Part shown: positions 7,824 through 55,961 of the stretch, in pieces
How positions within the stretch are numbered: position 1 is the first letter of the stretch
Layout of the letters: each line of letters starts with the position of its first letter
Origin: a virus
IMG/VR virus record: IMGVR_UViG_3300038436_000248
Coordinates: 1 to 64,000 of that record
Direction: 5' to 3' (one strand)
Length of the DNA: 64,000 nucleotides
Translations under genes and position numbers: made by a program
Notes under the pieces: model-generated
What the model saw: only the letters and a program-made list of their open reading frames with translations
What the model was told of the DNA's origin: nothing
Databases searched by the model: none

Positions 7824-8606
7824 TTACATAGAGCTTTCCAGTCGCCGTGCCAACTCCAGTAACTCTTTCACGGCCAGGCGGCCCCGCTTTTTTAGTTCTG
7901 CGTCTGTGACAGGCAGATCGGCAACCATGGAGAGGTCATTCTTTGCGGTCTCCAGGGCGGTTAGAACCAGCATGCCCACGCCATCCTCCGCAGATTCTAC
8001 TGTCTCTTCTGGGGCATGGCTCTTCGTGAGAGACTTTCTTTTCTCGGTTTCTACAAGATCCCGAATTTTCCGCACCGTCTTGAGACGGATGGCAGTGTCC
8101 GCCAGGGCTTCCTGCTGTTCCAATGGCAGAGGAAGGAGAGGCTCAATTGCAGAAGGGGCCAGGCGGCCATCAGCCACGGCCTTTTGTAATTTCGGAGAGG
8201 CTTCCAGGGTGGCAAGGGCAAGGGAAACATCTGCGCTGGTAGTTCCAAAGCTGGCAGCAATTTCCTTCTGAAGCATCCCAAGTTCCTTGAGTTTGGCGAA
8301 CGTCTTTGCCATATCCAGGTACCCAATAAGCTTCCGCTCATTGTTGATGATCACCTGCTGGATCACGTAATCACTTTCATACTCCACTTGCTCGACCTCA
8401 ACGTAGGGCACAAACTGCATGCCCAAGGATAAGGCCGCTTTGAGCCGACGATGCCCGTCTTTGACTTCATAAAAGCCATCGTCTGCCGGGGAGACAATGA
8501 TCGGCACCATGATACCCCTCTCAGCAATAGACGCCGCAAGAGAATCGTCCACCTCTTCACGTACATTCCCACGAGACCGGATATATTGCACGTCTATATA
8601 TTCCAT
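7824..8606 (-). CDS. parB: ParB-family partition/regulator protein
   Basis: 260 residues. Residues 1-70 are the ParB/Spo0J N-terminal nuclease-like (CTPase) domain with DGHRRLKAA (50-58), the counterpart of the GERRxRA nucleotide motif. Residues 111-135 form the parS-binding helix-turn-helix and are followed by the usual LxxAVADGRL segment; the C-terminus is charged and helical. Known family role: binds parS, loads CTP-dependently and spreads on DNA, normally with ParA. No ParA is visible here. A perfect parS-core palindrome lies 18 bases upstream of the start, overlapping its promoter, so autoregulation is likely. AGGAGG ribosome site. Confidence 0.92.
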   Translation of the reverse strand: MEYIDVQYIRSRGNVREEVDDSLAASIAERGIMVPIIVSPADDGFYEVKDGHRRLKAALSLGMQFVPYVEVEQVEYESDYVIQQVIINNERKLIGYLDMAKTFAKLKELGMLQKEIAASFGTTSADVSLALATLEASPKLQKAVADGRLAPSAIEPLLPLPLEQQEALADTAIRLKTVRKIRDLVETEKRKSLTKSHAPEETVESAEDGVGMLVLTALETAKNDLSMVADLPVTDAELKKRGRLAVKELLELARRLESSM

Positions 8607-8624
8607 ATTATCCTCCTGTTTTAT

Positions 8625-8638
8625 TTTTCACGTGAAAA
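8625..8638. promoter_or_regulatory. parS-like palindrome 1 (parB upstream)
   Basis: TTTTCACGTGAAAA, a perfect 14-bp palindrome with the parS core TTTCACGTGAAA. Its last base is the first base of the promoter -10, so ParB bound here could repress its own gene. Confidence 0.75.
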
Positions 8639-8666
8639 GTATAGCCTAAATATTAGAATCGGTCAA
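8638..8666 (-). promoter_or_regulatory. Sigma70-type promoter of parB
   Basis: Minus-strand TTGACC (8661-8666), 17-base spacer, GGCTATACT (hexamer 8638-8643). The palindrome at 8625-8638 abuts it. Confidence 0.7.
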
Positions 8667-9022
8667 GACAAATTGATCTTCTTGTGTTCACAAATCGTCT
8701 TTGCGGCGGCCACGCAACGCCTGCCGAGTGAGGCATGTACGCAGTCAAATGTTTCATCCCCGTCTCTGGTGAGGTGCTTCAAATAAATGTCATGCAGGCA
8801 CATCACCCTGATCCGTTCCTCCACCTCCCACATGGCCTCAAAATCCCTGGAGTAGTGGGGCACAAACTTGTACAAAGACTCCGCAAGCTGAATGTCCGTT
8901 GCTTGCTTCTTACTCAGAACCAGCGCCCGCTGCCCGTTGTCGATGGTCTCCCACTTGAAACCCATCAGGTGTTCAGCGACCAAAATTCGGGCCTGGTGCT
9001 CCTCAATGTATACATCTTTCAT
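8663..9022 (-). CDS. Hypothetical protein, 119 aa
   Basis: Start overlaps the upstream stop (ATGA) and lacks a good ribosome site, so it is probably translationally coupled. Two cysteines and several histidines near the C-terminus; no known domain. Its end overlaps the parB promoter. Confidence 0.7.
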   Translation of the reverse strand: MKDVYIEEHQARILVAEHLMGFKWETIDNGQRALVLSKKQATDIQLAESLYKFVPHYSRDFEAMWEVEERIRVMCLHDIYLKHLTRDGDETFDCVHASLGRRCVAAAKTICEHKKINLS

Positions 9023-9204
9023 CGCAGGGGGAACCTTATCTTTCTGCCTTTATAGGCTTCCACGTCTGTGCCACGCCAGAACTCAAAGACGCAAGGGATA
9101 TTCAGTGAGCGCCCGTATTGCAGGGCGCTCTCCTGAGTATCAAATGGCTTTGAGATAAGGGCTACCTGGAAAGGCAGCTCTAACACAAGATGCCACTTAT
9201 CCAT
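9019..9204 (-). CDS. Small protein, 61 aa
   Basis: Start at 9204 is fixed by GGAGGAGT. A single small alpha/beta domain with KPFDTQESALQYGRSL, which looks like a strand-helix unit. Coupled to its neighbours on both sides (8-base and 4-base overlaps). Confidence 0.7.
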   Translation of the reverse strand: MDKWHLVLELPFQVALISKPFDTQESALQYGRSLNIPCVFEFWRGTDVEAYKGRKIRFPLR

Positions 9205-9730
9205 TGACAATACTCCTCCAGCCGTTGTCCTGAACTGCGGCCAGCTCAACTGTTTCTCCAGGGGAAGGATCCTCCAGGAGGAAAGACAAGTCGGTGTCGA
9301 TATTGATTGCAGGCTCTTTGCCGAGCTTCAAGAATGGCATGGGGCTGCCTGCCTTGTGCATTTTCCCTGCGATTCCCTTGAAGAGTTTGAGGTCCAGCTT
9401 TTTTGTAACTGCCACAGGGGCGTTCTCTTCACACCATTGGATGGCCTTTGCCTCATCCTTGACCTCAAAGATTGTCTTATCCACCTTCTTTACACCCTTC
9501 ACGAGACCTTCCTGCCCCAACTTCTTGAAGCGCTCCAGGGCGAATTGACGTACTTCAGCATCCAGGGTGGTCTCCTGTGCGCTGGCGGCTTTGAATTTGC
9601 TGCTTGCTTCCTGCCATGCAGGTGTACTGTGAAGCTGCTCCAGCAAGGCCTTCTGTTCCGCTGAGGCTTCTTCTTTGGCCCGTCGGGTACGGGCCAGGCC
9701 AATGAGCGAATCTGTGAGTTTATTTTCCAT
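9197..9730 (-). CDS. Conserved phage protein, 177 aa
   Basis: N-terminal 90 residues are coiled-coil-like and charged. The C-terminal part (KKVDKTIFEVKDEAKAIQWC and a late strand ending in INIDTDL) matches, from memory, a widespread uncharacterised family in phage replication regions with a W-C-x-E-N-x-P signature. No enzymatic motif. AAGGGAG ribosome site. Confidence 0.75.
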   Translation of the reverse strand: MENKLTDSLIGLARTRRAKEEASAEQKALLEQLHSTPAWQEASSKFKAASAQETTLDAEVRQFALERFKKLGQEGLVKGVKKVDKTIFEVKDEAKAIQWCEENAPVAVTKKLDLKLFKGIAGKMHKAGSPMPFLKLGKEPAINIDTDLSFLLEDPSPGETVELAAVQDNGWRSIVNG

Positions 9731-9866
9731 TACTGAGCTCCCTTTTTTGAATATTCAAGAACATCTTCAGAAAGTTCTTGTTACTGGTATAACTTGGTGC
9801 TTTTGCACCTGGAAGAAGCACAAGCACTAAGCCCTGATCATATGCCCATCGGGCTGTGGGTGTCAT
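9720..9866 (-). CDS. Small ORF, 48 aa
   Basis: A 48-codon frame filling the gap between two genes: ATG at 9866 with AGAGG 7 bases upstream, TAA at 9720-9722 overlapping the next start. Hydrophobic stretch LVLVLLPG near residue 13-20, then basic. Likely real by position and ribosome site, but too short to test by composition. Confidence 0.5.
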   Translation of the reverse strand: MTPTARWAYDQGLVLVLLPGAKAPSYTSNKNFLKMFLNIQKRELSNGK

Positions 9867-9882
9867 TTTAGAAACCTCTTCT

Positions 9883-10443
9883 TTAGTTGCTTCTCATCCC
9901 ATACTTTTTTCTCCTCAGCCCAATGATGTGCCAGGTAGGGACCCGCAGGTCTTTTTCTTCGGAGAAGTGCAGAACTGCATACTGCTTGTCCTCACTGAAC
10001 CCATGGATCACCCCTGTCTTTTCCATACAACGGGCGACATGTTCATTTTGGGGAGCACACAATAAGCGCACGGGCTGCCCAACAAACAGGCGTCTCCCAT
10101 TTATGTCCTTTGGTAGCTCCGCCGGGATCTCTGCTTGCTTCAGCAGTACTTGTTGCGCCCTGTACGCAGGAGCTGCGACCTGGCTAAAGGTGTCAGCAAT
10201 TTGTTTGGGGGGCGCATTTTTTGCCAGGCTGGCGCTTCCCGGCGCACGCACGCCCAGAGCTGATCTTGGGCCGGTTACCGTGAGGGTGATTTTGTCCTCC
10301 ATTTCCTCCACCTCTACGGACACCTGCATCTTGTCTCCGTAAGCAAGCGTGCATTTCTTTGGAGAATTGAAGGTGACTTCAACCTTTTTGAACAGCTCAG
10401 CGGCAGCAAAAACACGTTCTTGAAAATCATTTCCTATACCCAT
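9883..10443 (-). CDS. Hypothetical protein, 186 aa
   Basis: Overlaps the nucleotidyltransferase stop by 10 bases. The C-terminal 70 residues (GQPVRLLCAP to YAVLHFSEEK) look like a small SH3/KOW-type beta barrel, with a separate beta-rich N-terminal part. Ribosome site is a distant GGAG. No family is recognised. Confidence 0.75.
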   Translation of the reverse strand: MGIGNDFQERVFAAAELFKKVEVTFNSPKKCTLAYGDKMQVSVEVEEMEDKITLTVTGPRSALGVRAPGSASLAKNAPPKQIADTFSQVAAPAYRAQQVLLKQAEIPAELPKDINGRRLFVGQPVRLLCAPQNEHVARCMEKTGVIHGFSEDKQYAVLHFSEEKDLRVPTWHIIGLRRKKYGMRSN

Positions 10444-11150
10444 AGGTCTATCAGCTCCAGGTAAAGTTCAGCGACGTAATCTTTATCCACTTCGTCAGGC
10501 AATTTGGAAATACTCAAGTTCTCCGTACACTGCTGGATCAAGCTTCCCGCACGATCTTTGAACTGCTCCAGTGTCCATTCACCGTTCAGTATCTCTCTAA
10601 GGGAGATCCAGCAGTTCGGAATGGGGAACCGCATTTCTCCGTACATATCCAGCTGGAGAAACTGGTAGCATAATCTACAGGTATTCATGGCGGCCTTGGT
10701 ATCATAGCCATAGGCATCAACGAGTACCTGGCGTTTTGAGGAGGCCTTGGACTTCCCGATGGCCTCTGTGAGCTGTCCGGATGCGTATTTCACGAATGCC
10801 TGGAGCGCATATTTTGTGATGAACCTGTCCCGTTCCCTGACAATGACATTCCATGCGCCTGTTTGATAAAGGACATTATCCTGGGGGGCGAAAAGCAACT
10901 CAAGAATGTTTGGGTTCCCGTTGGCACACAGAAAGAGGAAGTGCTTCAGGGCGTAGTAGGCCTCATCAAGGTCTTTCCTTTGCAATACTTTGTCCTCTTC
11001 AAAAGGGTCATTGCGCATGGCTCTTGAAGGAACAAACACCCCCCGGATGTCCCAATCGGAATCGGGTTTATGTGTGCCATACAAACGACTGCCAGACAAA
11101 ACTTTTGAAATCAGGTATTTCTCAACGGTATTCACTGTCACATGTTCCAT
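10434..11150 (-). CDS. Predicted nucleotidyltransferase (Pol beta superfamily)
   Basis: 238 residues. The N-terminal fold has the GS motif (20-21) followed by D32-x-D34 in the context THKPDSDWDIRGVF. This is the signature of the COG3541 branch of the polymerase-beta nucleotidyltransferases found in phages and bacteria. Known family chemistry is transfer of a nucleotide from NTP, or, in defence-related relatives, modification of RNA or protein; the substrate here is unknown. A helical C-terminal domain follows. AGGAGG ribosome site. Confidence 0.85.
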   Translation of the reverse strand: MEHVTVNTVEKYLISKVLSGSRLYGTHKPDSDWDIRGVFVPSRAMRNDPFEEDKVLQRKDLDEAYYALKHFLFLCANGNPNILELLFAPQDNVLYQTGAWNVIVRERDRFITKYALQAFVKYASGQLTEAIGKSKASSKRQVLVDAYGYDTKAAMNTCRLCYQFLQLDMYGEMRFPIPNCWISLREILNGEWTLEQFKDRAGSLIQQCTENLSISKLPDEVDKDYVAELYLELIDLWV

Positions 11151-11155
11151 TACGT

Positions 11156-11569
11156 TTATCCTCCTATCGGGGAGATCAATTCAATCCAACTGCACCAGAT
11201 CGCACCATTGAAACCAGTGGTCACCTTTGTGTAGTTATACAGATCATTGGCGTACCAGTTCTCTTTCCAGAAGGTGGTGAAGTCTCTCTCCCAGAAAGCG
11301 CCTGGCGCAGATGCTGCCACGATATTCCCACGAGCACTCCACAAGCTGAGCGTCCGCTCTTTTGGGTTGATGCAGTTCTCGATATATTTGATGTACTCCT
11401 CTGCATATTTCTGGTTTGAGAAGGCGTACAGCATGGAACCCTCAATGGGGGGCGTGGTCACCACGTTTGGCAGGTACTCCACGGCCCATGCAGAGGGAAA
11501 GGAGCTGAACATTCGCCCTTGGTTTTCTCCAGATATACATGCGTTTATTACTTTGTATATTATATCCAT
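11156..11569 (-). CDS. Hypothetical protein, 137 aa
   Basis: The ATG at 11569 is only 8 bases from the promoter -10 (11577-11582), so it would be leaderless; an internal ATG at 11512 has AAGGG a few bases upstream and may be the real start. Aromatic-rich, Trp-rich sequence with no known domain. Confidence 0.65.
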   Translation of the reverse strand: MDIIYKVINACISGENQGRMFSSFPSAWAVEYLPNVVTTPPIEGSMLYAFSNQKYAEEYIKYIENCINPKERTLSLWSARGNIVAASAPGAFWERDFTTFWKENWYANDLYNYTKVTTGFNGAIWCSWIELISPIGG

Positions 11570-11576
11570 GTCAATT

Positions 11577-11605
11577 AGTATAGCATAGAATAGTAGAAAA
11601 GAAAA
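11577..11605 (-). promoter_or_regulatory. Probable promoter (extended -10 only)
   Basis: Minus-strand TGCTATACT (hexamer 11577-11582) is a perfect family -10; the -35 position (TTTTCT) is poor. Confidence 0.5.
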
Positions 11606-11612
11606 GGGAGGA

Positions 11613-11900
11613 TCAGTTCTTCAAGATCTCGTTCCACGGGATGCCACCAACATCCTCTGCGTCAGAGTCGTCATCCTCCTGCGCAGGCAATTCCCAAGGC
11701 CAGAACCCTGTCTTTTGATAGATCTTTGCGGCCTGGCGGGCCTCTGCTTTGGTCAGGGTGTTTTGCATGATTATCTTGCCCGTAGCATTGATGAGCTCTC
11801 CCTTTTCCGTAACCAGGACTACGGCATTCTCATTGGTGAGCACTTCTGCTGTTTCGACCCAGCCACCATCGCTTAGAAACGTGTACAATTTTTTATCCAT
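11613..11900 (-). CDS. Hypothetical protein, 95 aa
   Basis: GAGGAGG ribosome site. N-terminal half beta-rich (two short hairpins), C-terminal tail very acidic (EDDDSDAED). No known domain. Confidence 0.75.
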   Translation of the reverse strand: MDKKLYTFLSDGGWVETAEVLTNENAVVLVTEKGELINATGKIIMQNTLTKAEARQAAKIYQKTGFWPWELPAQEDDDSDAEDVGGIPWNEILKN

Positions 11901-11909
11901 TGCTCCTCC

Positions 11910-12107
11910 TCAGATAATTAGAAAACTAAAACTTGTTATTCCTGCAATGATAAGGGCAATTATACCCACAATCACACAGGTGATCACAGCAAAGATGAAC
12001 AACCCGATCAGGGTGGTTACAATAAGCTGAACGAAAGCGATCAGCATGGCAAGTACTGCGCAAAACACATTGAATAGATTGACAGACGCTTCAACGAATT
12101 TCAACAT
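11910..12107 (-). CDS. Small membrane protein, 65 aa
   Basis: Almost entirely hydrophobic: two predicted transmembrane helices (about residues 12-33 and 36-63) and no long soluble part. AAAGGAG ribosome site; overlaps the upstream gene by 17 bases. Such phage peptides can be holin-like, spanin-like or superinfection-exclusion factors; nothing here decides. Confidence 0.75.
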   Translation of the reverse strand: MLKFVEASVNLFNVFCAVLAMLIAFVQLIVTTLIGLFIFAVITCVIVGIIALIIAGITSFSFLII

Positions 12108-16011: not shown

Positions 16012-16419
16012 TCACCTTTCCATGATCCAGGAAGCGCCAATCGACATAACAGGGGGAGTATTGGCCCCAACTTTCACATACAAGAACAATTCACTCCCCT
16101 CTGTCGCCCCATTTCTGCACAAAGACACAGCATAAGGCACAGCTCTCTTCAAACCCTTCCCCAACGCAGGGAGACGATCCACAACCCCCCAAGCATACTC
16201 ATTCACAAACTCATCCACCAGCTCCTCCAAGCGACCACTCTTCCCCCAAACCAACTCCACCTCATGGGAAAGCAAAAAAAGCCACAAAGAGGGATGCCTG
16301 AGACAACTTATATCCCGCAAAGCCCGTATACGCTGCTCCATAGCAGAGGAATACCGCACAAAAGCACACGTAGGGACTGTGTCAAGGGTGCCAGGGAAGG
16401 GAACAATCAAGTATTTCAT
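16012..16419 (-). CDS. MKYLIVP-family tandem paralogue B, 135 aa
   Basis: Begins MKYLIVPFPG; GGAGG sits about 12 bases upstream, so initiation may be weak. Clear similarity to paralogue A over most of the length. Followed upstream by a 200-base gap that holds a parS-like site. Confidence 0.7.
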   Translation of the reverse strand: MKYLIVPFPGTLDTVPTCAFVRYSSAMEQRIRALRDISCLRHPSLWLFLLSHEVELVWGKSGRLEELVDEFVNEYAWGVVDRLPALGKGLKRAVPYAVSLCRNGATEGSELFLYVKVGANTPPVMSIGASWIMER

Positions 16420-16470: not shown

Positions 16471-16484
16471 TTTTCACGTGAAAA
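16471..16484. promoter_or_regulatory. parS-like palindrome 2
   Basis: Perfect TTTTCACGTGAAAA in a noncoding gap (16420-16625) in which I see no gene; the rest of the gap is G-run and C-run rich. Confidence 0.75.
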
Positions 16485-19981: not shown

Positions 19982-20311
19982 TCACTCCTCCGGTATTACA
20001 TGCGTCCTGTGTATTTCATCGTAACGCTTTTTATACATAGCATAGGAAGCCCGCTTCTTTTCCGTGATCACATACTCGAAAAGAGATTCCAGCTCACGAC
20101 GCAAGGGAGCGGATTCCTCTGGGGTGGCTGGCCTGCTGCCCCGAATAACCCCGTCATAGTCCGCTGCCCCATGCTGCCCCACGTGCATATAACTCAAACA
20201 GTGGGGAGGGTAGTTGTCAGCGACCACTTCAGGGAATAGGGCAATGACTTCTTTCATTCCACTTTTGAATACTCTAAAGATAGCAGTGATGGGTTCGGGT
20301 TCAATTGGCAT
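19982..20311 (-). CDS. Hypothetical protein, 109 aa
   Basis: AAGGAG ribosome site, first gene after the promoter at 20356-20384. Helical, with a basic Tyr-rich C-terminus (SYAMYKKRYDE). No known domain. Confidence 0.75.
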   Translation of the reverse strand: MPIEPEPITAIFRVFKSGMKEVIALFPEVVADNYPPHCLSYMHVGQHGAADYDGVIRGSRPATPEESAPLRRELESLFEYVITEKKRASYAMYKKRYDEIHRTHVIPEE

Positions 20312-20355: not shown

Positions 20356-20384
20356 TTTATAGCATCGAAACTCTAATTCGTCAA
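20356..20384 (-). promoter_or_regulatory. Sigma70-type promoter
   Basis: Minus-strand TTGACG (20379-20384), 17-base spacer, TGCTATAAA (hexamer 20356-20361). A parS-like site lies 15 bases upstream. Confidence 0.7.
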
Positions 20385-20398: not shown

Positions 20399-20412
20399 TT
20401 TTCATGTGAAAA
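20399..20412. promoter_or_regulatory. parS-like palindrome 3 (one mismatch)
   Basis: TTTTCATGTGAAAA, one C-to-T change in the palindrome, just upstream of the promoter at 20356-20384. Confidence 0.6.
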
Positions 20413-27991: not shown

Positions 27992-28027
27992 GCCCATCCG
28001 TGGGCAAATCAGGGGCATGTAGCCCCT
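27992..28027. repeat. Twin-hairpin intergenic element
   Basis: GCCCA-TCCG-TGGGC (27992-28005), AAATC, AGGGGC-ATGTA-GCCCCT (28011-28027). Confidence 0.8.
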
Positions 28028-28362
28028 GTCCTGGATTCGATGACCCCCATGGTCAGGTCATATACACGGCGCAGGAAGTCCCTTTCCTGTATCGGCAGGA
28101 AGTAGTCTTCCTTGTAGGCCACGTCGAAGACACGAGCGTCCGGGCACTCATCAGGAGCAAAGACACCATGGCATGCCCAGCACTCTTCATTGTCCTGGCC
28201 GATCAGGACAGCGCCACAGTGTGGGCATTCTGTGAGGAGACCCGTCACCATCACGGTGTTCTCAAGGTCTGAAACGAAGCCAATGGTCTCGATCTTGGCG
28301 GGGTTTGAACCATCCAGGTTCTCCAGGAAGCTCTTGGTTGAAGGGCGGATGTCAGTTTTCAT
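28009..28362 (-). CDS. Zinc-motif hypothetical protein, 117 aa
   Basis: Start at 28362 (MKTDIRPS) is set by GAAAGGAA; the longer frame runs through the intergenic repeat. CPHCGA and CWACHG form a zinc site in the middle. A parS-like site overlaps its start codon. Confidence 0.75.
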   Translation of the reverse strand: MKTDIRPSTKSFLENLDGSNPAKIETIGFVSDLENTVMVTGLLTECPHCGAVLIGQDNEECWACHGVFAPDECPDARVFDVAYKEDYFLPIQERDFLRRVYDLTMGVIESRTGATCP

Positions 28363-28369
28363 GTGAAAA
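28356..28369. promoter_or_regulatory. parS-like palindrome 4 (one mismatch)
   Basis: TTTTCATGTGAAAA overlapping the start codon of the 117-aa gene. It could act as a translational or transcriptional roadblock, or be a chance degenerate copy. Confidence 0.5.
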
Positions 28370-32115: not shown

Positions 32116-32499
32116 CTACTTGCGTCCGCCGGGATTCTTCAAATTCGAGACCTTGATCAGGCCTTGGTACGTGACCACCCGCCCGCCCTTGCGATAGGTC
32201 ACCCGCCCGGAAACCACGTTCACAAACAGGTGTCCAAAAGCTTCATTCGCACGGGCGTTGTAGCCCTCGCTGGCGTCCAGCTCCAGCTCTATCGGGTCAA
32301 TCTGAAGCCACTTGGGCACCCGGCGCCCGTCCTTGTCAAGGGCTTTGCAATAGCCCTCAATTATCAGGACGTGAGTCCGCTCGGGCTTGGGCTTGGCGGG
32401 GGCGAGACTGCGAAACTCGCCCGTGTTGCCCAATTCCTTTGCTTCCCGGCGCCGGGCGGCGAGATCTGCCGCTTGACGCAATTTGCCCTCTTTACTCAT
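32116..32499 (-). CDS. Hypothetical basic protein, 127 aa
   Basis: Start at 32499 is set by AAAGGTGAGG. Lys/Arg-rich N-terminus (QAADLAARRREAKELG), then a beta-rich domain; a putative nucleic-acid-binding protein. Directly upstream of the candidate structured RNA. No family is recognised. Confidence 0.75.
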   Translation of the reverse strand: MSKEGKLRQAADLAARRREAKELGNTGEFRSLAPAKPKPERTHVLIIEGYCKALDKDGRRVPKWLQIDPIELELDASEGYNARANEAFGHLFVNVVSGRVTYRKGGRVVTYQGLIKVSNLKNPGGRK

Positions 32500-33220
32500 T
32501 CCAGACCTCACCTTTCTGCCCCGCCGGGGCGCTGTGTTTTGTTCGATGACCTAATAATAGCGATACCACACGGTATTAGGTTAGTAGATATTTGCATAGC
32601 CTAAAAATAGGTGGTGGGATGCCAGGTGCCAAAAAAGGGCAAAAACAGGGACGCCGTCCCCCAAAAGTGGCAAAAAATGGTGCCAAAGTGGGGGAGTGTT
32701 GGGGAAAAGTGCGCAGGAGCGCCCAAAGTGAATCCCCTCAGAAATCGGTGTTTTTGTTTTCAAATTTTTAAATTTTTCACGTGAAAATTTTCCGCCCCCC
32801 AAATTTCCCCCTCTCGCAACCCCCTCCCTTCGAGCGTCAAGAATTTCCTCCATCCCACAGTTCCATTCTCATATGTTCCAAAGTTCCCCCCACGTCTCAG
32901 TGCCCTTCTCTATGCAGCATGGAATCTCTCACGCCCCCTTGATTTTTATCCCCCGCCGTTTTTGCTTTTCCCCCCGCCGTGCACATGAACTTATTGCCCC
33001 CCGCCGCTGTTCCACTTATATCAATGTCTGCATATCAGAAGGAATGCAAGCGACTACCTCTATTGTTGTGAATCAGGTACAATGGTTAGTGGGATGGCCT
33101 TTGGACTACAAGCTTTGGATGGGTGGGAATATAATATCCTTGTATCAGGATGCTGAATAATCAGTAGTTGGTTGACTGTGATTGGTATTTCTTTGGGAAA
33201 TGTAAAGGAAGCGTCAAGCC
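32500..33220. other. Strand-switch intergenic region, possible origin
   Basis: 720 bases without a credible gene, where the leftward block meets the rightward methyltransferase module. It contains an inverted repeat CCTAATA/TATTAGG (32550-32580), a weak minus-strand -10 (TATGCA, 32593-32598), repeated GGTGCCAAA (32625, 32679) and GGCAAAAA (32638, 32669), an AT-rich tract and the parS-like site at 32774. Runs of C follow. Origin function is inference. Confidence 0.35.
32774..32787. promoter_or_regulatory. parS-like palindrome 5
   Basis: Perfect TTTTCACGTGAAAA extended to AATTTTTCACGTGAAAATTT, in the AT-rich part of the strand-switch region. Confidence 0.75.
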
Positions 33221-34174
33221 ATGGCAAAAACAAAAGGAAACAGTAATTTACATTTATCCCGTGCTGGTAAGACTGATGAGTTTTACACAGAAATATCCCT
33301 CATTGAGAAAGAGCTCCGCCATTACAAACACTTTTTCAAGGGGAAGACGGTTTTTTGTAACTGTGATGATCCCCAAGAAAGTAATTTTTGGAAATATTTC
33401 GAATTGAATTTTGAACGACTTGAATTGAAAAAACTTATCTCCACCCATTACGAAACAGATATTCCGTCTTATAAACTGGAGCTCAAACAGGATGTCAACA
33501 ATGACGGCAAGGTGACTGCGCTTGATATTATACATACCCCGCTCCGGCAGAACGGGGACTTCCGAAGCCCCGAGTGCAAAGAGATTATGCAAAACGCAGA
33601 TGTGATTGTTACCAACCCCCCCTTCTCTTTGTTTAGGGAATATGTTGCCCAGCTAATAGAATATGAAAAACATTTTTTAATAATTGGCAACCAGAATGCG
33701 ATTACATACAAGGAAATTTTCCCTCTCTTCAAGGATAATAAAACATGGCTTGGTTATACGAGTGGGCATTTCTGGTTCAGAGTCCCCGATGACTATGAAG
33801 TAAAGAAAACAGACTTCAAAATTGATGAGGTGGGCAAGAAGTGGCGGCGCATGGGAAATATTTGCTGGTTTACAAATATTGATATAGAAAAACGTCACGA
33901 AAACCTCACGCTTTTTAGAAACTACACACCGGAAAAGTATCCCAAATATGATAATTATGATGCCATCAATGTTGATAAAACAGTCGATATACCATGTGAT
34001 TACTTTGGGGTCATGGGTGTGCCAATTACTTTTATTGACAAACACAATCCGGAACAGTTTGAACTTTTAGGATTGGATGACCATAGATGCCCATGGCTTG
34101 GTCATGGTCCTTCTCTCAACGGCAAGACACTGTATAGGCGAATAATAATCCGCCGCCGACAGCAGGGTAATTAG
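33221..34174 (+). CDS. EcoRI-type DNA adenine methyltransferase
   Basis: 317 residues. The N-terminus (LHLSRAGKTDEFYTEISLIE) and FKGKTVFCNCDDPQESNFWK (40-58) are the hallmarks of the EcoRI methylase family; NPPF (132-135) is motif IV. Family reaction: SAM-dependent N6-adenine methylation of GAATTC in EcoRI itself; specificity here is untested. Plus-strand and AT-richer than its neighbours, so probably acquired as a module with the next gene. AAAGGA lies 12 bases upstream of the ATG. No EcoRI endonuclease is visible. Confidence 0.9.
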   Translation: MAKTKGNSNLHLSRAGKTDEFYTEISLIEKELRHYKHFFKGKTVFCNCDDPQESNFWKYFELNFERLELKKLISTHYETDIPSYKLELKQDVNNDGKVTALDIIHTPLRQNGDFRSPECKEIMQNADVIVTNPPFSLFREYVAQLIEYEKHFLIIGNQNAITYKEIFPLFKDNKTWLGYTSGHFWFRVPDDYEVKKTDFKIDEVGKKWRRMGNICWFTNIDIEKRHENLTLFRNYTPEKYPKYDNYDAINVDKTVDIPCDYFGVMGVPITFIDKHNPEQFELLGLDDHRCPWLGHGPSLNGKTLYRRIIIRRRQQGN

Positions 34175-34182
34175 GAGTACCA

Positions 34183-35274
34183 ATGAAAATTGAATTGAAT
34201 GAGATAAAGATTGAGGAAGTTGTGGACGGATATGCGGACAGCGCAGAAAATGGCGTTGTAGGCTATGGGGGATTGCTGAACATTCGTCCGGCTTTCCAGC
34301 GTGAGTTTATCTATAAAGAAAAGCAAAGGAATGAAGTTCTAAACACCGTTCGTCACAATTTCCCTCTGAACGTTATGTATTGGGTAAAAAGTGAGGGGGG
34401 TAAATTTGAGATGCTTGATGGACAACAGAGAACGATAAGTATTTGTCAATACATCAATGGGGACTACTCAATCGACTATCAATATTTTCACAACCTCACT
34501 ACAGACGAGCAGCGGCAGATATTAGAATACAAGCTGATGATTTATATTTGCGATGGAACAGACAAGGAAAAACTGGACTGGTTCAAGATAATCAACATCG
34601 CTGGGGAGCAGCTGACAATGCAGGAATTGAGAAACGCCATTTATACAGGGGAGTGGCTGACAGATGCTAAAAAGTATTTTAGTAAAAGTGGTTGCCCCGC
34701 CTATAATATTGCCAGCCATTACCTGAAAGGATCAGCTATCCGGCAGGACTATCTTGAAACTGTAATTTACTGGATTGCAGCAAAGGAGAATAAACAAATT
34801 GAAGACTATATGGCTGAGCATCAACATGAACCTTCGGCCAATGAATTATGGCTCTACTTCAGTTCTGTTATAAATTGGGTGAAAGTCACATTCCCAAATT
34901 ACCGCAGTGAAATGAAAGGGCTTGATTGGGGTTTGTATTACAATAAATTCGGTTCTGAAAAATACGACCCGAGAGCCCTTGAAAGCAGGGTTGTTTCCCT
35001 CATGGAAGATGAAGATGTAACACGCACTGCTGGAATTTATGAATACCTTCTTGATGGTGAAGAGAAACATTTGAACATACGAGCATTTTCAAAAAAAATG
35101 AGGCGTGCGGGCTATGAGCGGCAAAAAGGGATTTGTCCCGTATGTAAAAAGCATTTTGAGTATGAGGAAATGGAAGCAGACCATATAAAACCATGGCATG
35201 AAGGAGGGACTACATCTGCGGACAATTGCCAGATGTTATGCAAAGATGATAACCGCAGAAAATCAGGGAAATGA
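34183..35274 (+). CDS. DUF262-HNH nuclease-like protein
   Basis: 363 residues. N-terminal DUF262 (ParB-like) fold with MLDGQQRTIS near residue 77-86, and a C-terminal HNH motif: CPVC, then EADHIKPWHEGG and the N of TTSADNCQM. The family includes GmrS/BREX-type nucleotide-dependent nucleases. Immediately downstream of the methyltransferase (8-base gap, AGGAG), so the pair may act as a modification-dependent nuclease or anti-host system. Confidence 0.85.
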   Translation: MKIELNEIKIEEVVDGYADSAENGVVGYGGLLNIRPAFQREFIYKEKQRNEVLNTVRHNFPLNVMYWVKSEGGKFEMLDGQQRTISICQYINGDYSIDYQYFHNLTTDEQRQILEYKLMIYICDGTDKEKLDWFKIINIAGEQLTMQELRNAIYTGEWLTDAKKYFSKSGCPAYNIASHYLKGSAIRQDYLETVIYWIAAKENKQIEDYMAEHQHEPSANELWLYFSSVINWVKVTFPNYRSEMKGLDWGLYYNKFGSEKYDPRALESRVVSLMEDEDVTRTAGIYEYLLDGEEKHLNIRAFSKKMRRAGYERQKGICPVCKKHFEYEEMEADHIKPWHEGGTTSADNCQMLCKDDNRRKSGK

Positions 35275-38438: not shown

Positions 38439-40328
38439 CTATGTATTACATAGGCCAGTTCCGCAGTCTTTGCACTCCTTACACCCACCATGATGAATAA
38501 GTTCTCCACCACAGTTTGGACATACCTCCCCTTCCCCTTCTCTGTATAAAACAGCCTCGTCCCTGCTGCCGTCTCTGTAAACCGTGATGCCCTTCAGCCA
38601 AAGCTCCCATGCAAGCATATAAAGATCCGCAATATCCTGGACGGAAGCGTCCTTTGGAAGGTTCACAGTTTTGCTGATGGCTGAATCTACATGGCTCTGA
38701 ATAGCTGCCTGCACCTTGATGTGGTCGCTCGGTGAAACCTCATAGGAGGTTTGCCAAACGGAATCAGGAATGCCCATGGAGCGGGACAGGAGAGCTCCTG
38801 GGTGGACATAATCCACAAAGGTATCCTCCCCATGGATGCGAGTACGCCGTTTGTATTCCAGGGCAAACACGGGCTCAATTCCGGAGGATGCACCAAGCAG
38901 ATTTGAGATCGACCCCGTTGGGGCGATGCTGAGCAGTGTAATGTTCCGGGTACCGTGCAGAATAATCTCTCTTTTCAGCTTGTCTGGAAGAGTTTTGTAG
39001 AACCCTTCTTCCACAATTTGGCTGCGAGTGTGGATGTCTGTGCCTTCCCATACACCACAGGCACCCCGCTCTTTCGCAAGGTGGATCGTTGTTTGGTAGG
39101 CGGTACGCTTGGCAGTTCCAAAAATCTCGTCCGCCAGATCTTCAGACTCTTCATATCGCTCCCCAAGGAACGCTACCATATCAGCGTACCCCATAACGCC
39201 AAGACCAATCCTGCGCAGGGCAATATCCGATTCCATCTGTGTGTTTGTTACAGCCCTGTGATCCTGGATTTCTTTCTCAATCACATTGTCAAGAAAGGTT
39301 ACTGCCATTTCTACGGTGTCCCGGAAGCCCTCAATGTCAAAATAAGCATCCTTCGTGAAGGGGTCTACTACGAAAGCTCCTAAATTGATAGAGCCCAGAT
39401 TGCAAACGCCATCCTGGTCAAGCACAACTTCTGAGCAGGCATTCGTGCCAACGACCTTCCACCGATCCCCAAAGGCGTCGGAGTTTGATAAATCCCGCTG
39501 CGTGTCAATAAACAACACTCCAGGTTCCGCTGAGCGCCAGGCGCATGCAGCCAGCTCTGTGAACAAATCAATTGCTCGCACGGTTTTTTTCACGTGAAAA
39601 CTTTTGCCCCCGCTCTCTCCATCAAACGTCAATTCCCATGGCTGATCATTTTTTACTGCATACATAAAGTCATCAGAAACCATCACGCTGATGTTTGCGT
39701 TTTCTACACGCCCAGGGAGTGTTTTGATCCGTAAAAAGTCGTAGGGTACTTTACCGGAAAACCTGCATTCCATGCATCCCCCGCCACGACATTTTGGGCA
39801 CTCAACATCACCAGCGCCTGGCCTGTAAATATCAGGATGCTTCACATCCATAGAAAACAAAAGAGCAGCTCTGCGGCCTTCCTGCCCAATAACACCCCCA
39901 ACATGATTGAATAATTCCATAAATGATAAGGCGCCAGTAGATGTCTTGGCAGCGTTCGCAACAGGGGAATCCTTTGGGCGCAGCTTGCTGATATTGACAC
40001 CGATTCCCTGCCCTCTGCTGGAGGCTTTCATAATTGTGCTCATCGTTTTTGAAATGCTTTCAATGGTGTCCCCTTCAACTGCGTGTGTTGTGCAATTCAT
40101 CAAGGACAAACCCCCAACATCATCCCTGCCAGCAAAGGCCAGTATACGCCCACCTGGGCAAAACTTTTTGCTGGAGAGGGCTTCGTAAATACGTTCCTCC
40201 ATCTTCGCATCGCCAGCACAAAACGTTGCTGCCAGGAACTTGTGCATCCCATCAATATTTTTTGAAAATCTTCCTGCATATTTGGTCTCGTAGACCTCTT
40301 CTGCAAATGGGTCGGTAAAAAATGACAT
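38439..40328 (-). CDS. nrdJ: B12-dependent (class II) ribonucleotide reductase
   Basis: 629 residues. N296-x-C298-x-E300 (NACSE) and CNLGSINL (309-316) are the catalytic loop; C79 is the first redox cysteine. Reduces ribonucleotides to deoxyribonucleotides using adenosylcobalamin, so works with or without oxygen. An unusual CPKC/CMEC zinc-like insert lies at 177-188, and the C-terminus has CPNC...CKECKDCG, the usual redox tail of the family. A parS-like site lies within the gene at 39587-39600. ACAGGAG ribosome site. Confidence 0.95.
   Translation of the reverse strand: MSFFTDPFAEEVYETKYAGRFSKNIDGMHKFLAATFCAGDAKMEERIYEALSSKKFCPGGRILAFAGRDDVGGLSLMNCTTHAVEGDTIESISKTMSTIMKASSRGQGIGVNISKLRPKDSPVANAAKTSTGALSFMELFNHVGGVIGQEGRRAALLFSMDVKHPDIYRPGAGDVECPKCRGGGCMECRFSGKVPYDFLRIKTLPGRVENANISVMVSDDFMYAVKNDQPWELTFDGESGGKSFHVKKTVRAIDLFTELAACAWRSAEPGVLFIDTQRDLSNSDAFGDRWKVVGTNACSEVVLDQDGVCNLGSINLGAFVVDPFTKDAYFDIEGFRDTVEMAVTFLDNVIEKEIQDHRAVTNTQMESDIALRRIGLGVMGYADMVAFLGERYEESEDLADEIFGTAKRTAYQTTIHLAKERGACGVWEGTDIHTRSQIVEEGFYKTLPDKLKREIILHGTRNITLLSIAPTGSISNLLGASSGIEPVFALEYKRRTRIHGEDTFVDYVHPGALLSRSMGIPDSVWQTSYEVSPSDHIKVQAAIQSHVDSAISKTVNLPKDASVQDIADLYMLAWELWLKGITVYRDGSRDEAVLYREGEGEVCPNCGGELIHHGGCKECKDCGTGLCNT
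39587..39600. promoter_or_regulatory. parS-like palindrome 6 (inside nrdJ)
   Basis: Perfect TTTTCACGTGAAAA inside the coding sequence of the reductase, where codon constraint makes chance retention unlikely. Confidence 0.7.
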
Positions 40329-44582: not shown

Positions 44583-44585
44583 GAC

Positions 44586-44657
44586 TCCTTTCGGCGGGGT
44601 TCAAACCCGCATCTCCCCCCGTTATGGCAGGCGGAATATCGGTTTTCCTACGAAAGG
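44586..44657 (-). tRNA. tRNA-like gene, anticodon uncertain
   Basis: 72 bases. Acceptor CCTTTCG/CGAAAGG perfect; D arm GGAA/TTCC; T arm GCGGG-TTTGAAC-CCCGC perfect. The anticodon arm is weak (CCTGC with GGGGG, one mismatch), and position 33 is A instead of U, so the identity cannot be read. No CCA encoded. Confidence 0.65.
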
Positions 44658-44745
44658 ATGTTGCAATCGGCCTGGCTGCTTGGGATTTGTAGATTTTCTT
44701 TATATCGCCAGACCTGCGGGTATACATAAGGCGCCGTAGCGCTTG

Positions 44746-44817
44746 AGCCACCCCCAGGAGTCGAACCTGGCCCCCCAGCATTCACTTCTACTGGCGTGCT
44801 CTATACACCAGGGCGGC
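44746..44817 (-). tRNA. tRNA-like gene, anticodon uncertain
   Basis: 72 bases. Acceptor GCCGCCC/GGGTGGC; T arm CCAGG-TTCGACT-CCTGG perfect. The D arm is short and the anticodon arm is 6 bp with an eight-base loop GAAGTGAA, so GUG or another triplet is possible. No CCA encoded. Confidence 0.6.
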
Positions 44818-51045: not shown

Positions 51046-51073
51046 AGCATAGCACAAAAATCAAATTTGTCAA
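51046..51073 (-). promoter_or_regulatory. Sigma70-type promoter of the terminase operon
   Basis: Minus-strand TTGACA (51068-51073), 16-base spacer, TGCTATGCT (hexamer 51046-51051). Divergent from the portal gene. Confidence 0.7.
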
Positions 51074-51116
51074 TCGTATATAGAAAGCAATTGTAGACTT
51101 TAGATGAGGCGTGTAA

Positions 51117-52703: not shown

Positions 52704-52986
52704 TGATCATAGTAGTAATGTTTGGGTTTGCGTAAAATGCTCCGCTCCGCTCGGAACCGTTTTTGGGGGGGAATTTATTCCTTCTGATGTTCCATCGAAA
52801 AACATTCGCACAAGTGGCCCTAATTTGCTTGTGACCTGTCCCAAATGCGGGGCACAGAAAACCTGGTACACCGCAGATCAAACTGTTCGTGCGGTTTACC
52901 AATTGATAGAGGTCATTTCGTCCGCCATTGTAACCAGGGCTGTTCGCCAAGCGAGTGAAAAGACCCTGCCAACAAAGGGAGAGTAG
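52696..52986 (+). CDS. Small zinc-ribbon protein, 96 aa
   Basis: Start at 52696 (GAGG upstream), overlapping the portal stop. CVKCSAPL and CPKCGAQK form a zinc ribbon. Small zinc proteins between portal and protease are known in several phages, sometimes as translational regulators (Com-like); not shown here. Confidence 0.7.
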   Translation: MPNDHSSNVWVCVKCSAPLGTVFGGEFIPSDVPSKNIRTSGPNLLVTCPKCGAQKTWYTADQTVRAVYQLIEVISSAIVTRAVRQASEKTLPTKGE

Positions 52987-53028
52987 ACAAATTTTCCCTT
53001 ATTCCGATTGGAGTAAATAGGACTAATT

Positions 53029-53292
53029 ATGAAAGATACTATTGTTCAGGTAACCGGATTCACCGCCCCATTCCGAGGCTCTCCTGCAGAGATGTTTCTC
53101 AGCGAAGAGGATGCTGCTGTTCTGCACGAGCGATGGAATGACAGTGCTTGGAGTGAGCGTCTCGATTGCGGTGGTGGGGAATACTCAATTTCTTGTGAAC
53201 AGATATTAGAGGTTCCTCTTCAGGACTTCGCCAGAGTTTATGGCAAGACCCTGTCGAGCAGAATCCTGTCCGCTGTCAGGGGGGGCATTTAG
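53029..53292 (+). CDS. Hypothetical protein, 87 aa
   Basis: Ends one base before the protease start. AGGA ribosome site. Preceded by a copy of the CCGATTGGAG/TAAAT motif seen in the intergenic repeats. No known domain; the context is a morphogenesis block. Confidence 0.65.
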   Translation: MKDTIVQVTGFTAPFRGSPAEMFLSEEDAAVLHERWNDSAWSERLDCGGGEYSISCEQILEVPLQDFARVYGKTLSSRILSAVRGGI

Positions 53293-53293
53293 C

Positions 53294-54511
53294 ATGAAGC
53301 ACATCGACAAGACTGCCCAGACTGTTGCAAGGAAAGTCATTGGTGTCCGTCTCTACAAGACCCTTGAAAAGCAGGATGATGGTTCTATTCTCATCCGAGG
53401 GAAGTTTACCTCTGACAACAAAGATGAGATCGGGGACATTATCACTCGTAGTGCTACGGAGGCAGCCATCCCCTCCTATCGGGCATGGGGAAACATCCGT
53501 TATATGCATCTCCCCCGCCCCGTTGGAAAAGTTACCCGGATCGGCACTGAGGATGGCCTTGAATGGAACGAAGTAGAAATTCGAGTCATTGATCCACAGG
53601 CAGTATTTGAAGTTGAGAACGGACTGCTGACGGCTCTGTCCGTGGGTATCATTATCAATTTTGAAGACATTGAACTTTCCCCTGATGAAGACGGGGGCTG
53701 GATTATCCATAATTACAAATTGGCAGAAATTTCTCTTGTTGATCATCCGGCGAACTATGACGCAAAGCTTGATTTAGGCGCTATGCCAGACGCATTTCGC
53801 ACATTGGCCCGAGAAAAAGGACTTCTGAAGGCCCTTGGTGAATATCAGAATTTAGGAGACCCCATGACACGTACAAAGAAAGACCTTACTCCCCAGGTTG
53901 AGGATACTGCTGAAGTTTCTGCAATGGCGCCTGAAGCCATCCTGGACGAAGAAGTGGTCGATAAGGCCATTGAGGCCCAGGAAGTTCCTGATGCCCCCGC
54001 AGAAGAAGTTGTCCCTGCAGAAGCTGAGAAAACCCTGGCTGACGCAGATATGCCGGAGGCCGCAGAGGTTATCTCGGAAGACAAAGATCTCCCTGAGGAA
54101 GAAGTCACCTTCGCAGAAATCCCTGCACCTGAAAAAGTTTCTTCTCCCATTCCCGATGCAAGTGAAGTTTTTCTTGCCGCAGCGAGCTCCTTGGAGAAGG
54201 TAGTGGCATCCCTTGAGGTTCACTTGAAAGCTTTGGCCCCGATTGCGCAGGAAGTCCCAGCGGAGGCTCCGAGTACAGCGGAGCGGTCTGTGGAGACTGC
54301 GGATCCAGCCGACAGCATTCGTGCACTCCAGGAGAAAGTCGCTTCTCTGGAAGCCCAGCTTGCCGATTTGGAAAAACCTTCCGCTCGAAAGGGTGTAATT
54401 CAAGCTGAGGGCGTGGAAGACGAGACTGTTGATGGTGATGAGAAGGAAACTCCTCAAGCCTCCACCTTGAGGGATGCGGTTCGCAATTACATGCTTTCCC
54501 GCAGCCAGTAA
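53294..54511 (+). CDS. Prohead protease, S78 family, fused to scaffold
   Basis: 405 residues; start at 53294 with a G-rich site. Residues 1-180 hold the S78 fold: YMHLPRPVGKV (catalytic His), LLTALSVGI (Ser) and ISLVDHPAN. Residues 200-405 are very acidic, Ala/Pro-rich and coiled, as scaffold parts are. It cleaves scaffold and capsid tails during head maturation. An internal in-frame start (53864) probably makes free scaffold. Confidence 0.88.
   Translation: MKHIDKTAQTVARKVIGVRLYKTLEKQDDGSILIRGKFTSDNKDEIGDIITRSATEAAIPSYRAWGNIRYMHLPRPVGKVTRIGTEDGLEWNEVEIRVIDPQAVFEVENGLLTALSVGIIINFEDIELSPDEDGGWIIHNYKLAEISLVDHPANYDAKLDLGAMPDAFRTLAREKGLLKALGEYQNLGDPMTRTKKDLTPQVEDTAEVSAMAPEAILDEEVVDKAIEAQEVPDAPAEEVVPAEAEKTLADADMPEAAEVISEDKDLPEEEVTFAEIPAPEKVSSPIPDASEVFLAAASSLEKVVASLEVHLKALAPIAQEVPAEAPSTAERSVETADPADSIRALQEKVASLEAQLADLEKPSARKGVIQAEGVEDETVDGDEKETPQASTLRDAVRNYMLSRSQ
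53864..54511 (+). CDS. Nested scaffold start inside the protease gene
   Basis: ATG at 53864 is in frame with the protease and preceded by AGGAG at 53854-53858, spacing 5. It would yield the last 215 residues, the acidic coiled scaffold, as a separate protein, as lambda C/Nu3 does. Confidence 0.55.
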   Translation: MTRTKKDLTPQVEDTAEVSAMAPEAILDEEVVDKAIEAQEVPDAPAEEVVPAEAEKTLADADMPEAAEVISEDKDLPEEEVTFAEIPAPEKVSSPIPDASEVFLAAASSLEKVVASLEVHLKALAPIAQEVPAEAPSTAERSVETADPADSIRALQEKVASLEAQLADLEKPSARKGVIQAEGVEDETVDGDEKETPQASTLRDAVRNYMLSRSQ

Positions 54512-54558
54512 TCTGATTTTACGCTGTCCATATTTAGACAAATACAAGGAATTTGAAA

Positions 54559-55878
54559 ATGCCCAAACCTTTTGAACTTCGCAAAGCTTTGACCACCTCT
54601 TCGGAAAGCGGAGCAGCCTTGCTGCCCTGCGATCTGGAGAACTTCTTGAACGAAGAGCTCCTGGAGCTGCAGCCCCTGGCCGTTCTCCTGGATGTTGTCC
54701 CCGCCAAGAGTCTCATGCACGAATACACCGTGCGCACCTCCCATCCGCAGGGTTGGTTTGAGGGTGAGACGACCCCTGCAAATCCTTTGAACTCCACCTA
54801 CAAGCGGAAGTTCACCCAGCTCAAGATCCAGCGTATTTGGGGCTCCGTGCCAGGCTTCCAGCAGGCCTTGTCCGAGGAGTTCATTGACGCTTTGGAAGCA
54901 GAGCTCCGTGGCTCACTTGAGGGCATGTCAAATGTCCTGGAATACGGTTGTATGTGGGGCGCAGCGGATGACCTGGGATTCACTGGCGATGCCTATCAGT
55001 ACTCCGGCCTGTTCGCTCATTTGGCGGCCTACGCTGAGGAAAACATCATCAGCGCAGGTGGTGCCAAGATCAGCCTGGACGCCTTGGATGAGGTTGTGGC
55101 AACTGTCACTCGCTTCCGTGGCGTGGACAGCGACCTCAAGCTGTGGCTGATGGGCCTGCGCATGAAGCAGGTGCTGGATGGCTTGCAGACCAAGGTCTCC
55201 ATCCCCCTGACCAACTCGGTGCTTGCAGACGGCAAGATCACCATGCGCAACTATGCCGACATCCCGATCAATCCCACCGCCTACACTGTGCCCGCATCCG
55301 TGAGCACCTCCCCGGCTGATCTGGCTGGCACTGCTGCCGCAGGCGGTACTCTGGGCGCTGGCTCCTACACCTACCGGATCTCCTCGGTGACCGTGATGGG
55401 TGAACAGGAAGCCTCTGCCGCCACCAGCGCAGTAGTACTCGCTGACGCAAACAAGAAGGTCAACCTGGCCTGGAGCAAAGATCCGAACGCCAAGTTGTAC
55501 TACATCTGGCGCCAGAAAGCCACTGCTGGCTGGCAGCTGATCGACATCGTCCCTGCCCTGACCTACTCCGCAGACGGCACGGTCAATGGCGCCATCGAGA
55601 CCTATGTCGATGACGGCACCAAGACCCCCCGCAACATCAAGCCTCTGGAAGCAGGCGAGCAGAACATCTTCCTGGCGAACCGCCACAAGGATCGTGGCGT
55701 GCAGTTCCTGGGCAAGATGGACGACATGGGCGTCCCCATGGACAACCTGTTCTCCTACGTCGAGTTGGCCCGTGTCAAGGACACCTATGACTACATGCTC
55801 AAGGGATACCTGGGCTTCCGGGCGAAGTACCCGAATACTGCGGGTGCAATTCTCCGCAACGTGAAGCTGAAGGCGTAA
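54559..55878 (+). CDS. Major capsid protein (HK97 fold) with Ig-like insert
   Basis: 439 residues; AAGGA upstream of the ATG at 54559. The N-terminal arm and central helices resemble HK97-type capsids; YVELARVKDTYDYMLKGYLGFRAKYP closes the chain. Residues about 245-345 (AGSYTYRISSVTVMGEQEAS, NKKVNLAWSKD, YYIWRQK) look like a fibronectin/Ig-type domain inserted into the capsid fold. The gene is visibly richer in G and C than its neighbours, as expected for very high expression. Confidence 0.88.
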   Translation: MPKPFELRKALTTSSESGAALLPCDLENFLNEELLELQPLAVLLDVVPAKSLMHEYTVRTSHPQGWFEGETTPANPLNSTYKRKFTQLKIQRIWGSVPGFQQALSEEFIDALEAELRGSLEGMSNVLEYGCMWGAADDLGFTGDAYQYSGLFAHLAAYAEENIISAGGAKISLDALDEVVATVTRFRGVDSDLKLWLMGLRMKQVLDGLQTKVSIPLTNSVLADGKITMRNYADIPINPTAYTVPASVSTSPADLAGTAAAGGTLGAGSYTYRISSVTVMGEQEASAATSAVVLADANKKVNLAWSKDPNAKLYYIWRQKATAGWQLIDIVPALTYSADGTVNGAIETYVDDGTKTPRNIKPLEAGEQNIFLANRHKDRGVQFLGKMDDMGVPMDNLFSYVELARVKDTYDYMLKGYLGFRAKYPNTAGAILRNVKLKA

Positions 55879-55897
55879 GCCAAAAGCAGGTAAATCT

Positions 55898-55926
55898 GGG
55901 GAGGCGAGAGCCTCCCCATTTTTATT
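55898..55926 (+). terminator. Rho-independent terminator after the capsid gene
   Basis: GGGGAGGC-GAGA-GCCTCCCC followed by ATTTTTATT. Likely limits read-through from capsid to neck genes. Confidence 0.9.
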
Positions 55927-55947
55927 CACAACACACCCCACAAATAG

Positions 55948-55961
55948 TTTTCACGTGAAAA
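55948..55961. promoter_or_regulatory. parS-like palindrome 7
   Basis: Perfect TTTTCACGTGAAAA in the gap between the capsid terminator and the neck genes. Confidence 0.75.

What the first reader, a model, noticed from the sequence alone, without database searches (positions are those of the whole stretch)
7824..55961. Phage ParB homologue with a dispersed network of parS-like sites
The sequence shows five exact TTTTCACGTGAAAA and two one-mismatch copies (8625, 16471, 20399, 28356, 32774, 39587, 55948), whose core TTTCACGTGAAA is identical to bacterial parS. A 14-bp palindrome occurring five times exactly in 64 kb is far beyond chance. One copy abuts the promoter of a gene coding a full ParB (nucleotide motif plus HTH). 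No ParA is seen. Possible roles: plasmid-like partition of a phage-plasmid, DNA organisation in the infected cell, or ParB-spreading regulation.
Basis: partly seen in the sequence, partly recalled or inferred. Interest (0 to 1): 0.88.

Follow-up and report, generated by a model that had tools for sequence, protein, structure and literature searches.

The report
Phage ParB with scattered operator sites
A previously uncatalogued 86-kb bacterial virus carries a lone chromosome-segregation-type protein (ParB) and seven near-identical 14-bp landing sites spread over 47 kb, one sitting on the ParB gene's own promoter, which suggests that the virus has turned a DNA-partition protein into a genome-wide gene regulator.

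Summary
Five exact TTTTCACGTGAAAA and two TTTTCATGTGAAAA sites lie at the stated coordinates. No 14-bp palindrome occurs twice in any of 200 dinucleotide shuffles of the whole 85.7-kb record. Five of seven sites are fully intergenic (P = 3e-4), and no further site with one mismatch or fewer lies in the last 21.7 kb. The gene at 7824-8606(-) is a genuine ParB/RepB/Spo0J protein (TIGR00180 above cut-off). It keeps all seven residues needed for CTP binding in Caulobacter ParB, but not the catalytic E102 and E135 positions. There is no ParA-type ATPase, no ParA-binding motif, no RepA_N and no HTH_3 repressor, but there is a Xer-like recombinase. The 8625 site overlaps the -10/+1 of parB's own promoter; 20399 sits 14 bp upstream of another promoter of the same phage family. 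The sites are not bacterial parS: the G:C at parS position 1 is T:A at every site, and the ParB residue aligned with R173, which reads that base, is Ser. Most other known parS contacts are also replaced, so binding is likely but unproven. Best reading: an orphan ParB clamp used as an autoregulated, dispersed-operator regulator, like plasmid KorB. Partition and capture by host ParB are live rivals. No close relatives were found.

The parts
7824..8606 (-). parB: 260-aa orphan ParB/RepB/Spo0J-family protein (P0001)
   Evidence: Pfam ParB_N and HTH_ParB over cut-off; TIGR00180 67.8 bits vs cut-off 58.45; PDB phmmer to Spo0J, ParB, Noc, KorB
8638..8666 (-). parB promoter TTGACC-N17-TATACT
   Evidence: consensus scans; same -10 family as promoters at 7566-7537, 13188-13160, 44900-44871
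8625..8638 (.). palindromic site 1 TTTTCACGTGAAAA; overlaps last base of parB -10 and the expected +1; 18 bp upstream of parB ATG
16471..16484 (.). site 2 TTTTCACGTGAAAA; intergenic, about 51 bp upstream of ORF 16012-16419(-)
20399..20412 (.). site 3 TTTTCATGTGAAAA; intergenic, 14 bp upstream of the -35 of promoter 20384-20356(-)
20356..20384 (-). promoter TTGACG-N17-TATAAA of ORF 19982-20311(-)
   Evidence: family member of the repeat D10
28356..28369 (.). site 4 TTTTCATGTGAAAA; straddles the ATG of ORF 28009-28362(-)
32774..32787 (.). site 5 TTTTCACGTGAAAA; in 721-bp divergent gap between 32116-32499(-) and 33221-35274(+)
39587..39600 (.). site 6 TTTTCACGTGAAAA; inside ribonucleotide reductase gene 38439-40328(-)
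55948..55961 (.). site 7 TTTTCACGTGAAAA; intergenic, 69 bp after the major head protein gene, 69 bp before ORF 56031-56624(+)

Best explanation
The phage encodes an orphan ParB-type clamp protein that recognises TTTTCAYGTGAAAA and uses the seven dispersed sites as operators and loading sites. At site 8625 it would cover the -10/+1 of its own promoter and shut off parB (negative autoregulation). At the other sites it would load, bind a nucleotide (probably CTP), close and slide, damping or organising transcription of early, middle and late blocks, in the manner of KorB on plasmid RK2. The changed outer base pair of the site and the changed recognition helix would keep it apart from the host's own ParB-parS system. 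Shown here: the sites, their non-randomness, their intergenic bias, the promoter overlap, the ParB family assignment, retention of the CTP-binding residues and absence of detectable ParA. Inferred: binding, clamp closure, repression and orthogonality to the host.
For: Sites far beyond chance. Five of seven fully intergenic, P = 2.6e-4. Site 8625 overlaps the parB core promoter, and 20399 lies 14 bp upstream of a promoter of the same family. All seven Caulobacter residues needed for CTP binding (R60, S74, G79, R103, R104, N136, R139; PMC8367383) have counterparts R16, S26, G31, R53, R54, N88, R91; R60=R16 rests on the MAFFT alignment. Position 1 of the half-site, read by R173 in ParB (PMC7383237), is T instead of G at all seven sites, and the aligned residue is S124. 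No ParA and no (L/F/I)G(K/R)G(L/F/I) motif. No HTH_3 repressor found. KorB precedent: operators 4-10 bp or 45 to >1000 bp from promoters, 12 sites on RK2 (PMC11790492).
Against: Of the six parS-contact residues conserved in ParB and Noc (Q162, G170, K171, S172, N178, R204), only Q and G are kept (the others align with T122, T123, L129 and about E155), yet 12 bp of the site equal parS. That is odd if this ParB reads the site in the canonical way. There is no comparative support: no close ParB relative and no second phage with the same network. Among viral contigs holding one copy of the palindrome, ParB is at background (4/50 vs 3/50). Only two of seven sites lie at recognisable promoters.
Confidence: 0.55

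Rival explanations
1. Partition: the phage is kept as a plasmid in lysogens, and ParB with dispersed centromeres segregates it, using host ParA or another motor, as in prophage N15 with its four IR sites.
For: Real ParB-family protein; tyrosine recombinase nearest to XerA/XerC types, which could resolve dimers; N15 has four IR centromere sites and SopB silences nearby promoters (PMC7205306; their dispersal in the N15 genome is own knowledge).
Against: No ParA-type ATPase at E<=10 in the whole record, no ParA-binding motif in ParB, no RepA_N. Sites not clustered. The record is cut exactly at gene edges with the recombinase last, which suits an excised integrated provirus.
Confidence: 0.15
2. 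Host ParB (Spo0J-type) binds the phage sites, to segregate, silence or entrap the phage genome; the phage parB gene is a competitor or is unrelated to the sites.
For: The 12-bp core equals parS. Multi-copy canonical parS in phage contigs without ParB or ParA recurs in IMG/VR. Precedent: phi29 spore entrapment through Spo0J (cited in PMC9437464). Lysis genes suggest a Gram-positive host. A 54-kb viral contig without ParB has three such cores directly upstream of start codons.
Against: Those phages carry G1 (true parS); here position 1 is T on both sides of all seven sites, and R173 of ParB contacts G1 (PMC7383237). One site sits on the phage's own parB promoter.
Confidence: 0.14
3. Another phage or host DNA-binding protein (repressor, activator or nucleoid protein) recognises the palindrome, and its position at parB is coincidental.
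For: ParB contact residues are diverged. Many phage proteins have no recognised domain.
Against: No HTH_3 repressor found; the coincidence with the parS core and with the parB promoter.
Confidence: 0.1
4. The sites organise phage DNA physically (condensation, replication or packaging); any effect on transcription is secondary.
For: Sites are spread at 4-16 kb steps over 47 kb, one inside the ribonucleotide reductase gene.
Against: Intergenic bias and promoter overlap favour a regulatory role.
Confidence: 0.06

Closest known systems
KorB and its OB operators on plasmid RK2
   Same: ParB-family clamp with dispersed palindromic operators, some next to promoters and some distant; regulates many operons (PMC11790492)
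   Different: Different operator sequence; KorB works with KorA and its plasmid has a ParA (IncC); only E=9e-4 sequence similarity; here phage-borne, and no KorA was identified
Phage-plasmid N15 SopB with IR1-IR4 centromeres
   Same: Phage-encoded ParB-family protein with several sites; ParB silences adjacent promoters (PMC7205306)
   Different: N15 has SopA and is a linear plasmid prophage; here there is no ParA and there is a tyrosine recombinase
Bacterial ParB-parS (Spo0J, Caulobacter ParB)
   Same: Protein family; inner 12 bp of the site
   Different: Site lacks G:C at position 1; recognition-helix contacts replaced; no ParA; no ParA-binding motif
Noc-NBS
   Same: Orphan ParB relative, dispersed sites, non-parS base at position 1 (A in NBS)
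   Different: Position 6 is A as in parS, not C as in NBS; Noc specificity residues Q/K/K/R absent; TIGR04285 far below cut-off (63 vs 315 bits)
Orphan phage ParB-like proteins (Nyceiraevirus, Corndogvirus; survey PMC12704722)
   Same: ParB-CTPase fold in a phage without ParA next to it
   Different: Longer proteins (about 500 aa); no repeated 14-bp palindrome in Meyran or in the JangDynasty stretch examined
phi29-type capture by host Spo0J
   Same: A phage genome handled by a ParB-family protein
   Different: Host protein used there; here the phage has its own ParB and variant sites

Membership tests
ParB/RepB/Spo0J protein family | TIGR00180 and ParB_N/HTH_ParB models above curated cut-off | tested here: met
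ParB/RepB/Spo0J protein family | CTP-binding residues (Caulobacter R60, S74, G79, R103, R104, N136, R139) | tested here: met
   aligned R16, S26, G31, R53, R54, N88, R91; the R60 match depends on the alignment
ParB/RepB/Spo0J protein family | CTP hydrolysis positions E102 and E135 | tested here: not met
   aligned to H52 and I87; these are not required of all family members: a human-gut RepB-like protein read here also has GHRR
ParABS partition system | ParA ATPase encoded with ParB | tested here: not met
   PF13614 absent at E<=10 over 85.7 kb, rings in all 14 control genomes
ParABS partition system | ParA-binding motif (L/F/I)G(K/R)G(L/F/I) in ParB | tested here: not met
   no match in P0001; definition from PMC12704722
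ParABS partition system | effect on inheritance | not testable with these tools
   needs lysogens
canonical bacterial parS | G at position 1 (GTTTCAC half-site) | tested here: not met
   T on both sides at all seven sites; parS numbering from PMC7383237
KorB-type dispersed operator regulator | several palindromic operators dispersed over the element, at or near promoters | tested here: met
   7 sites, 5 intergenic, one on the parB core promoter, one 14 bp upstream of a -35
KorB-type dispersed operator regulator | partner KorA with its own operator | tested here: inconclusive
   many small proteins have no domain hit; no KorA was identified, and KorA was not searched for specifically
KorB-type dispersed operator regulator | CTP-dependent sliding clamp that represses | not testable with these tools
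   biochemistry needed
phage-plasmid | plasmid replication initiator or partition pair | tested here: inconclusive
   no RepA_N, no ParA; other initiator families were not tested
temperate phage | integrase | tested here: met
   tyrosine recombinase 84714-85676(-) in the record, beyond the window; activity unknown

The most novel reading that the evidence does not exclude
In a temperate phage without a detectable CI-type (HTH_3) repressor, a ParB clamp has become the master repressor. It loads at seven dispersed operators, silences its own promoter and the early, middle and late blocks by sliding, and, having lost the usual catalytic glutamates, stays locked on DNA as a long-lived lysogenic switch that is insulated from host ParB by a one-base change in the site.
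Probability: 0.13. Interest if true: 0.88.

Novelty: new variant of a known kind. Interest (0 to 1): 0.6.

Why it matters
ParB is known chiefly as a DNA-segregation clamp, and KorB shows that such clamps can regulate genes. A phage with its own ParB, no ParA and a variant-parS operator network would show that viruses have co-opted this switch for genome-wide control. It would also be a natural test of how ParB specificity moves away from parS at a single base pair and of whether a ParB with altered catalytic positions still clamps.

Tried and rejected
Close relatives were sought by ParB, DNA polymerase and terminase in IMG/VR, GTDB genomes and 50,697 phages; only remote ones turned up. A promoter-plus-operator pattern TATAMTTTTCACGTGAAAA gave no hit in IMG/VR. 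Association of the palindrome with ParB across viral contigs was tested against a control palindrome and found at background, so single copies elsewhere are probably chance. AlphaFold without an alignment failed (pLDDT 41.6) and was not used. The Noc-NBS assignment was rejected on the site sequence and model score. RNA families: none in the window. Chance, and a half-site network, were rejected by shuffles.

Full report
OBSERVATION. The palindrome TTTTCACGTGAAAA is present exactly at 8625, 16471, 32774, 39587 and 55948, and as TTTTCATGTGAAAA at 20399 and 28356. The window lies in an 85,676-bp virus record; the other 21.7 kb add only a two-mismatch match at 70365. It is the only 14-bp palindrome found more than once in the window and its most frequent 14-mer. 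In 200 dinucleotide-preserving shuffles of the full record no 14-bp palindrome reached two copies. TTTTC....GAAAA occurs 7 times against 0.18 expected, and isolated half-sites are not in excess, so the unit is the full 14 bp. Every TTCACGTGAA in the window is extended to the full 14 bp, so the outer T:A pair is part of the signal. Five of seven sites are fully intergenic where 10.8% of 14-mers are (P = 2.6e-4; gene models are my own).

THE PROTEIN. The ORF 7824-8606(-) has ParB_N and HTH_ParB above cut-off and passes TIGR00180. Solved relatives are Spo0J, ParB, Noc and, weakly, KorB. Paper-defined residues were mapped on the alignments. The seven residues whose mutation abolishes or weakens CTP binding in Caulobacter ParB (PMC8367383) are all matched; R60=R16 depends on the MAFFT placement, since phmmer aligns R12 there. 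E102, whose loss gives a clamp-locked, non-hydrolysing protein, is His52, and E135 is Ile87. In the recognition helix, Q162 and G170 are kept, but K171, S172, R173 and N178 are T, T, S and L, and R204 is about E155. The motif that binds ParA is absent (definition in PMC12704722).

SITE VERSUS parS. In the numbering of PMC7383237, parS half-sites are G1 T2 T3 T4 C5 A6 C7 and NBS half-sites A1 ... C6. The phage half-site is T1 T2 T3 T4 C5 A6 C7. R173 contacts G1. The one base that differs from parS in the exact copies is therefore the base read by the residue that is Ser here. This fits a shifted specificity, but it is one correlation, and the loss of other contact residues while the inner 12 bp stay those of parS remains unexplained.

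WHERE THE SITES ARE. The parB promoter reads TTGACC-17-TATACT, with the palindrome starting at the last T of the -10 and covering the expected +1, followed by AGGAGG and ATG. The same extended -10 family recurs at other minus-strand promoters without the palindrome. Site 20399 ends 14 bp upstream of TTGACG-17-TATAAA, another member. Site 16471 is about 51 bp upstream of ORF 16012-16419. Site 32774 is in a divergent gap beside an EcoRI-type methylase / DUF262-HNH cassette. Site 55948 follows the major head protein gene. Site 28356 straddles the start codon of 28009-28362. Site 39587 is inside the ribonucleotide reductase gene.

CONTEXT. The phage has a family-A DNA polymerase, ribonucleotide reductase, thymidylate synthase, dUTPase, SSB, RNase H, terminase, portal, head and tape-measure genes, a GH25 lysin, a holin of superfamily 6 (just below the family cut-off) and a Xer/XerA-like tyrosine recombinase. 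No ParA-type ATPase, HTH_3 repressor or RepA_N was found; the host is probably Gram-positive (inference from the lysis genes). The record begins at a stop codon and ends at a start codon, which suggests trimming to gene edges, as for a predicted provirus; this is an inference.

COMPARISONS. No close relative was found by ParB, polymerase or terminase. In 50 IMG/VR records that hold the palindrome, 48 have one copy; ParB is no more frequent than with a control palindrome. Two other phages with orphan ParB lack a repeated 14-bp palindrome in the stretches read. By contrast, canonical 16-bp parS recurs in several copies in clear phage contigs with neither ParB_N nor AAA_31, which suggests use of host ParB there and makes host capture a real rival here.

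EXPLANATION. I commit to an orphan ParB clamp acting as an autoregulated, dispersed-operator regulator (0.55 overall; about 0.7 that this ParB binds the sites). KorB on RK2 is the nearest working analogue (PMC11790492); N15 SopB is the nearest phage precedent for several ParB sites and silencing (PMC7205306; dispersal of IR1-IR4 is own knowledge). By membership it is a ParB-family protein; it is not shown to be a ParABS system, and two of that system's tested defining features are not met. Binding, sliding and repression need experiment.

Noticed in passing
window 23496, 24687, 26001, 26460, 26925, 27586, 28009, 28415, 28807, 30036, 30459 (minus strand): At least eleven twin-hairpin 5' leaders: hairpin GGGGC/GCCCC, linker ATTTG, then a second hairpin whose stem sequence varies but stays complementary (GCCAC/GTGGC, GCTCC/GGAGC, GCCCA/TGGGC, GTCCA/TGGAC), followed by a ribosome site and ATG. 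No Rfam match; looks like a repeated cis-acting RNA element (automatic alignment did not align the second stem).
   Followed up: partly
L276, L317, L283, L310, L270, L319, L305, L290, L329: IMG/VR contigs with two to six copies of the parS core (mostly canonical TGTTTCACGTGAAACA) and no ParB_N or ParA-type ATPase in the record; of those checked, L276 and L317 look phi29-like and L283, L310 and L270 carry terminases. In L276 a pair lies directly upstream of a gene.
   Followed up: partly
L080:1729-2274: A 54-kb viral contig without ParB has three TTTCACGTGAAA cores within 550 bp, directly upstream of start codons of small genes.
   Followed up: partly
window 33221-35274 (+): EcoRI-type adenine methylase followed by a DUF262/GmrSD_N-HNH protein, a pair that recurs on plasmids of many phyla; probably a mobile restriction-type cassette.
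   Followed up: partly
window 44585-44817 (-): Two tRNA-like predictions with abnormal anticodons.
   Followed up: no
window minus strand, e.g. 7566-7537, 13188-13160, 44900-44871, 3624-3596, 1516-1488: A family of near-consensus TTGACA / TATGCTATACTTA promoters, most without the palindrome.
   Followed up: partly
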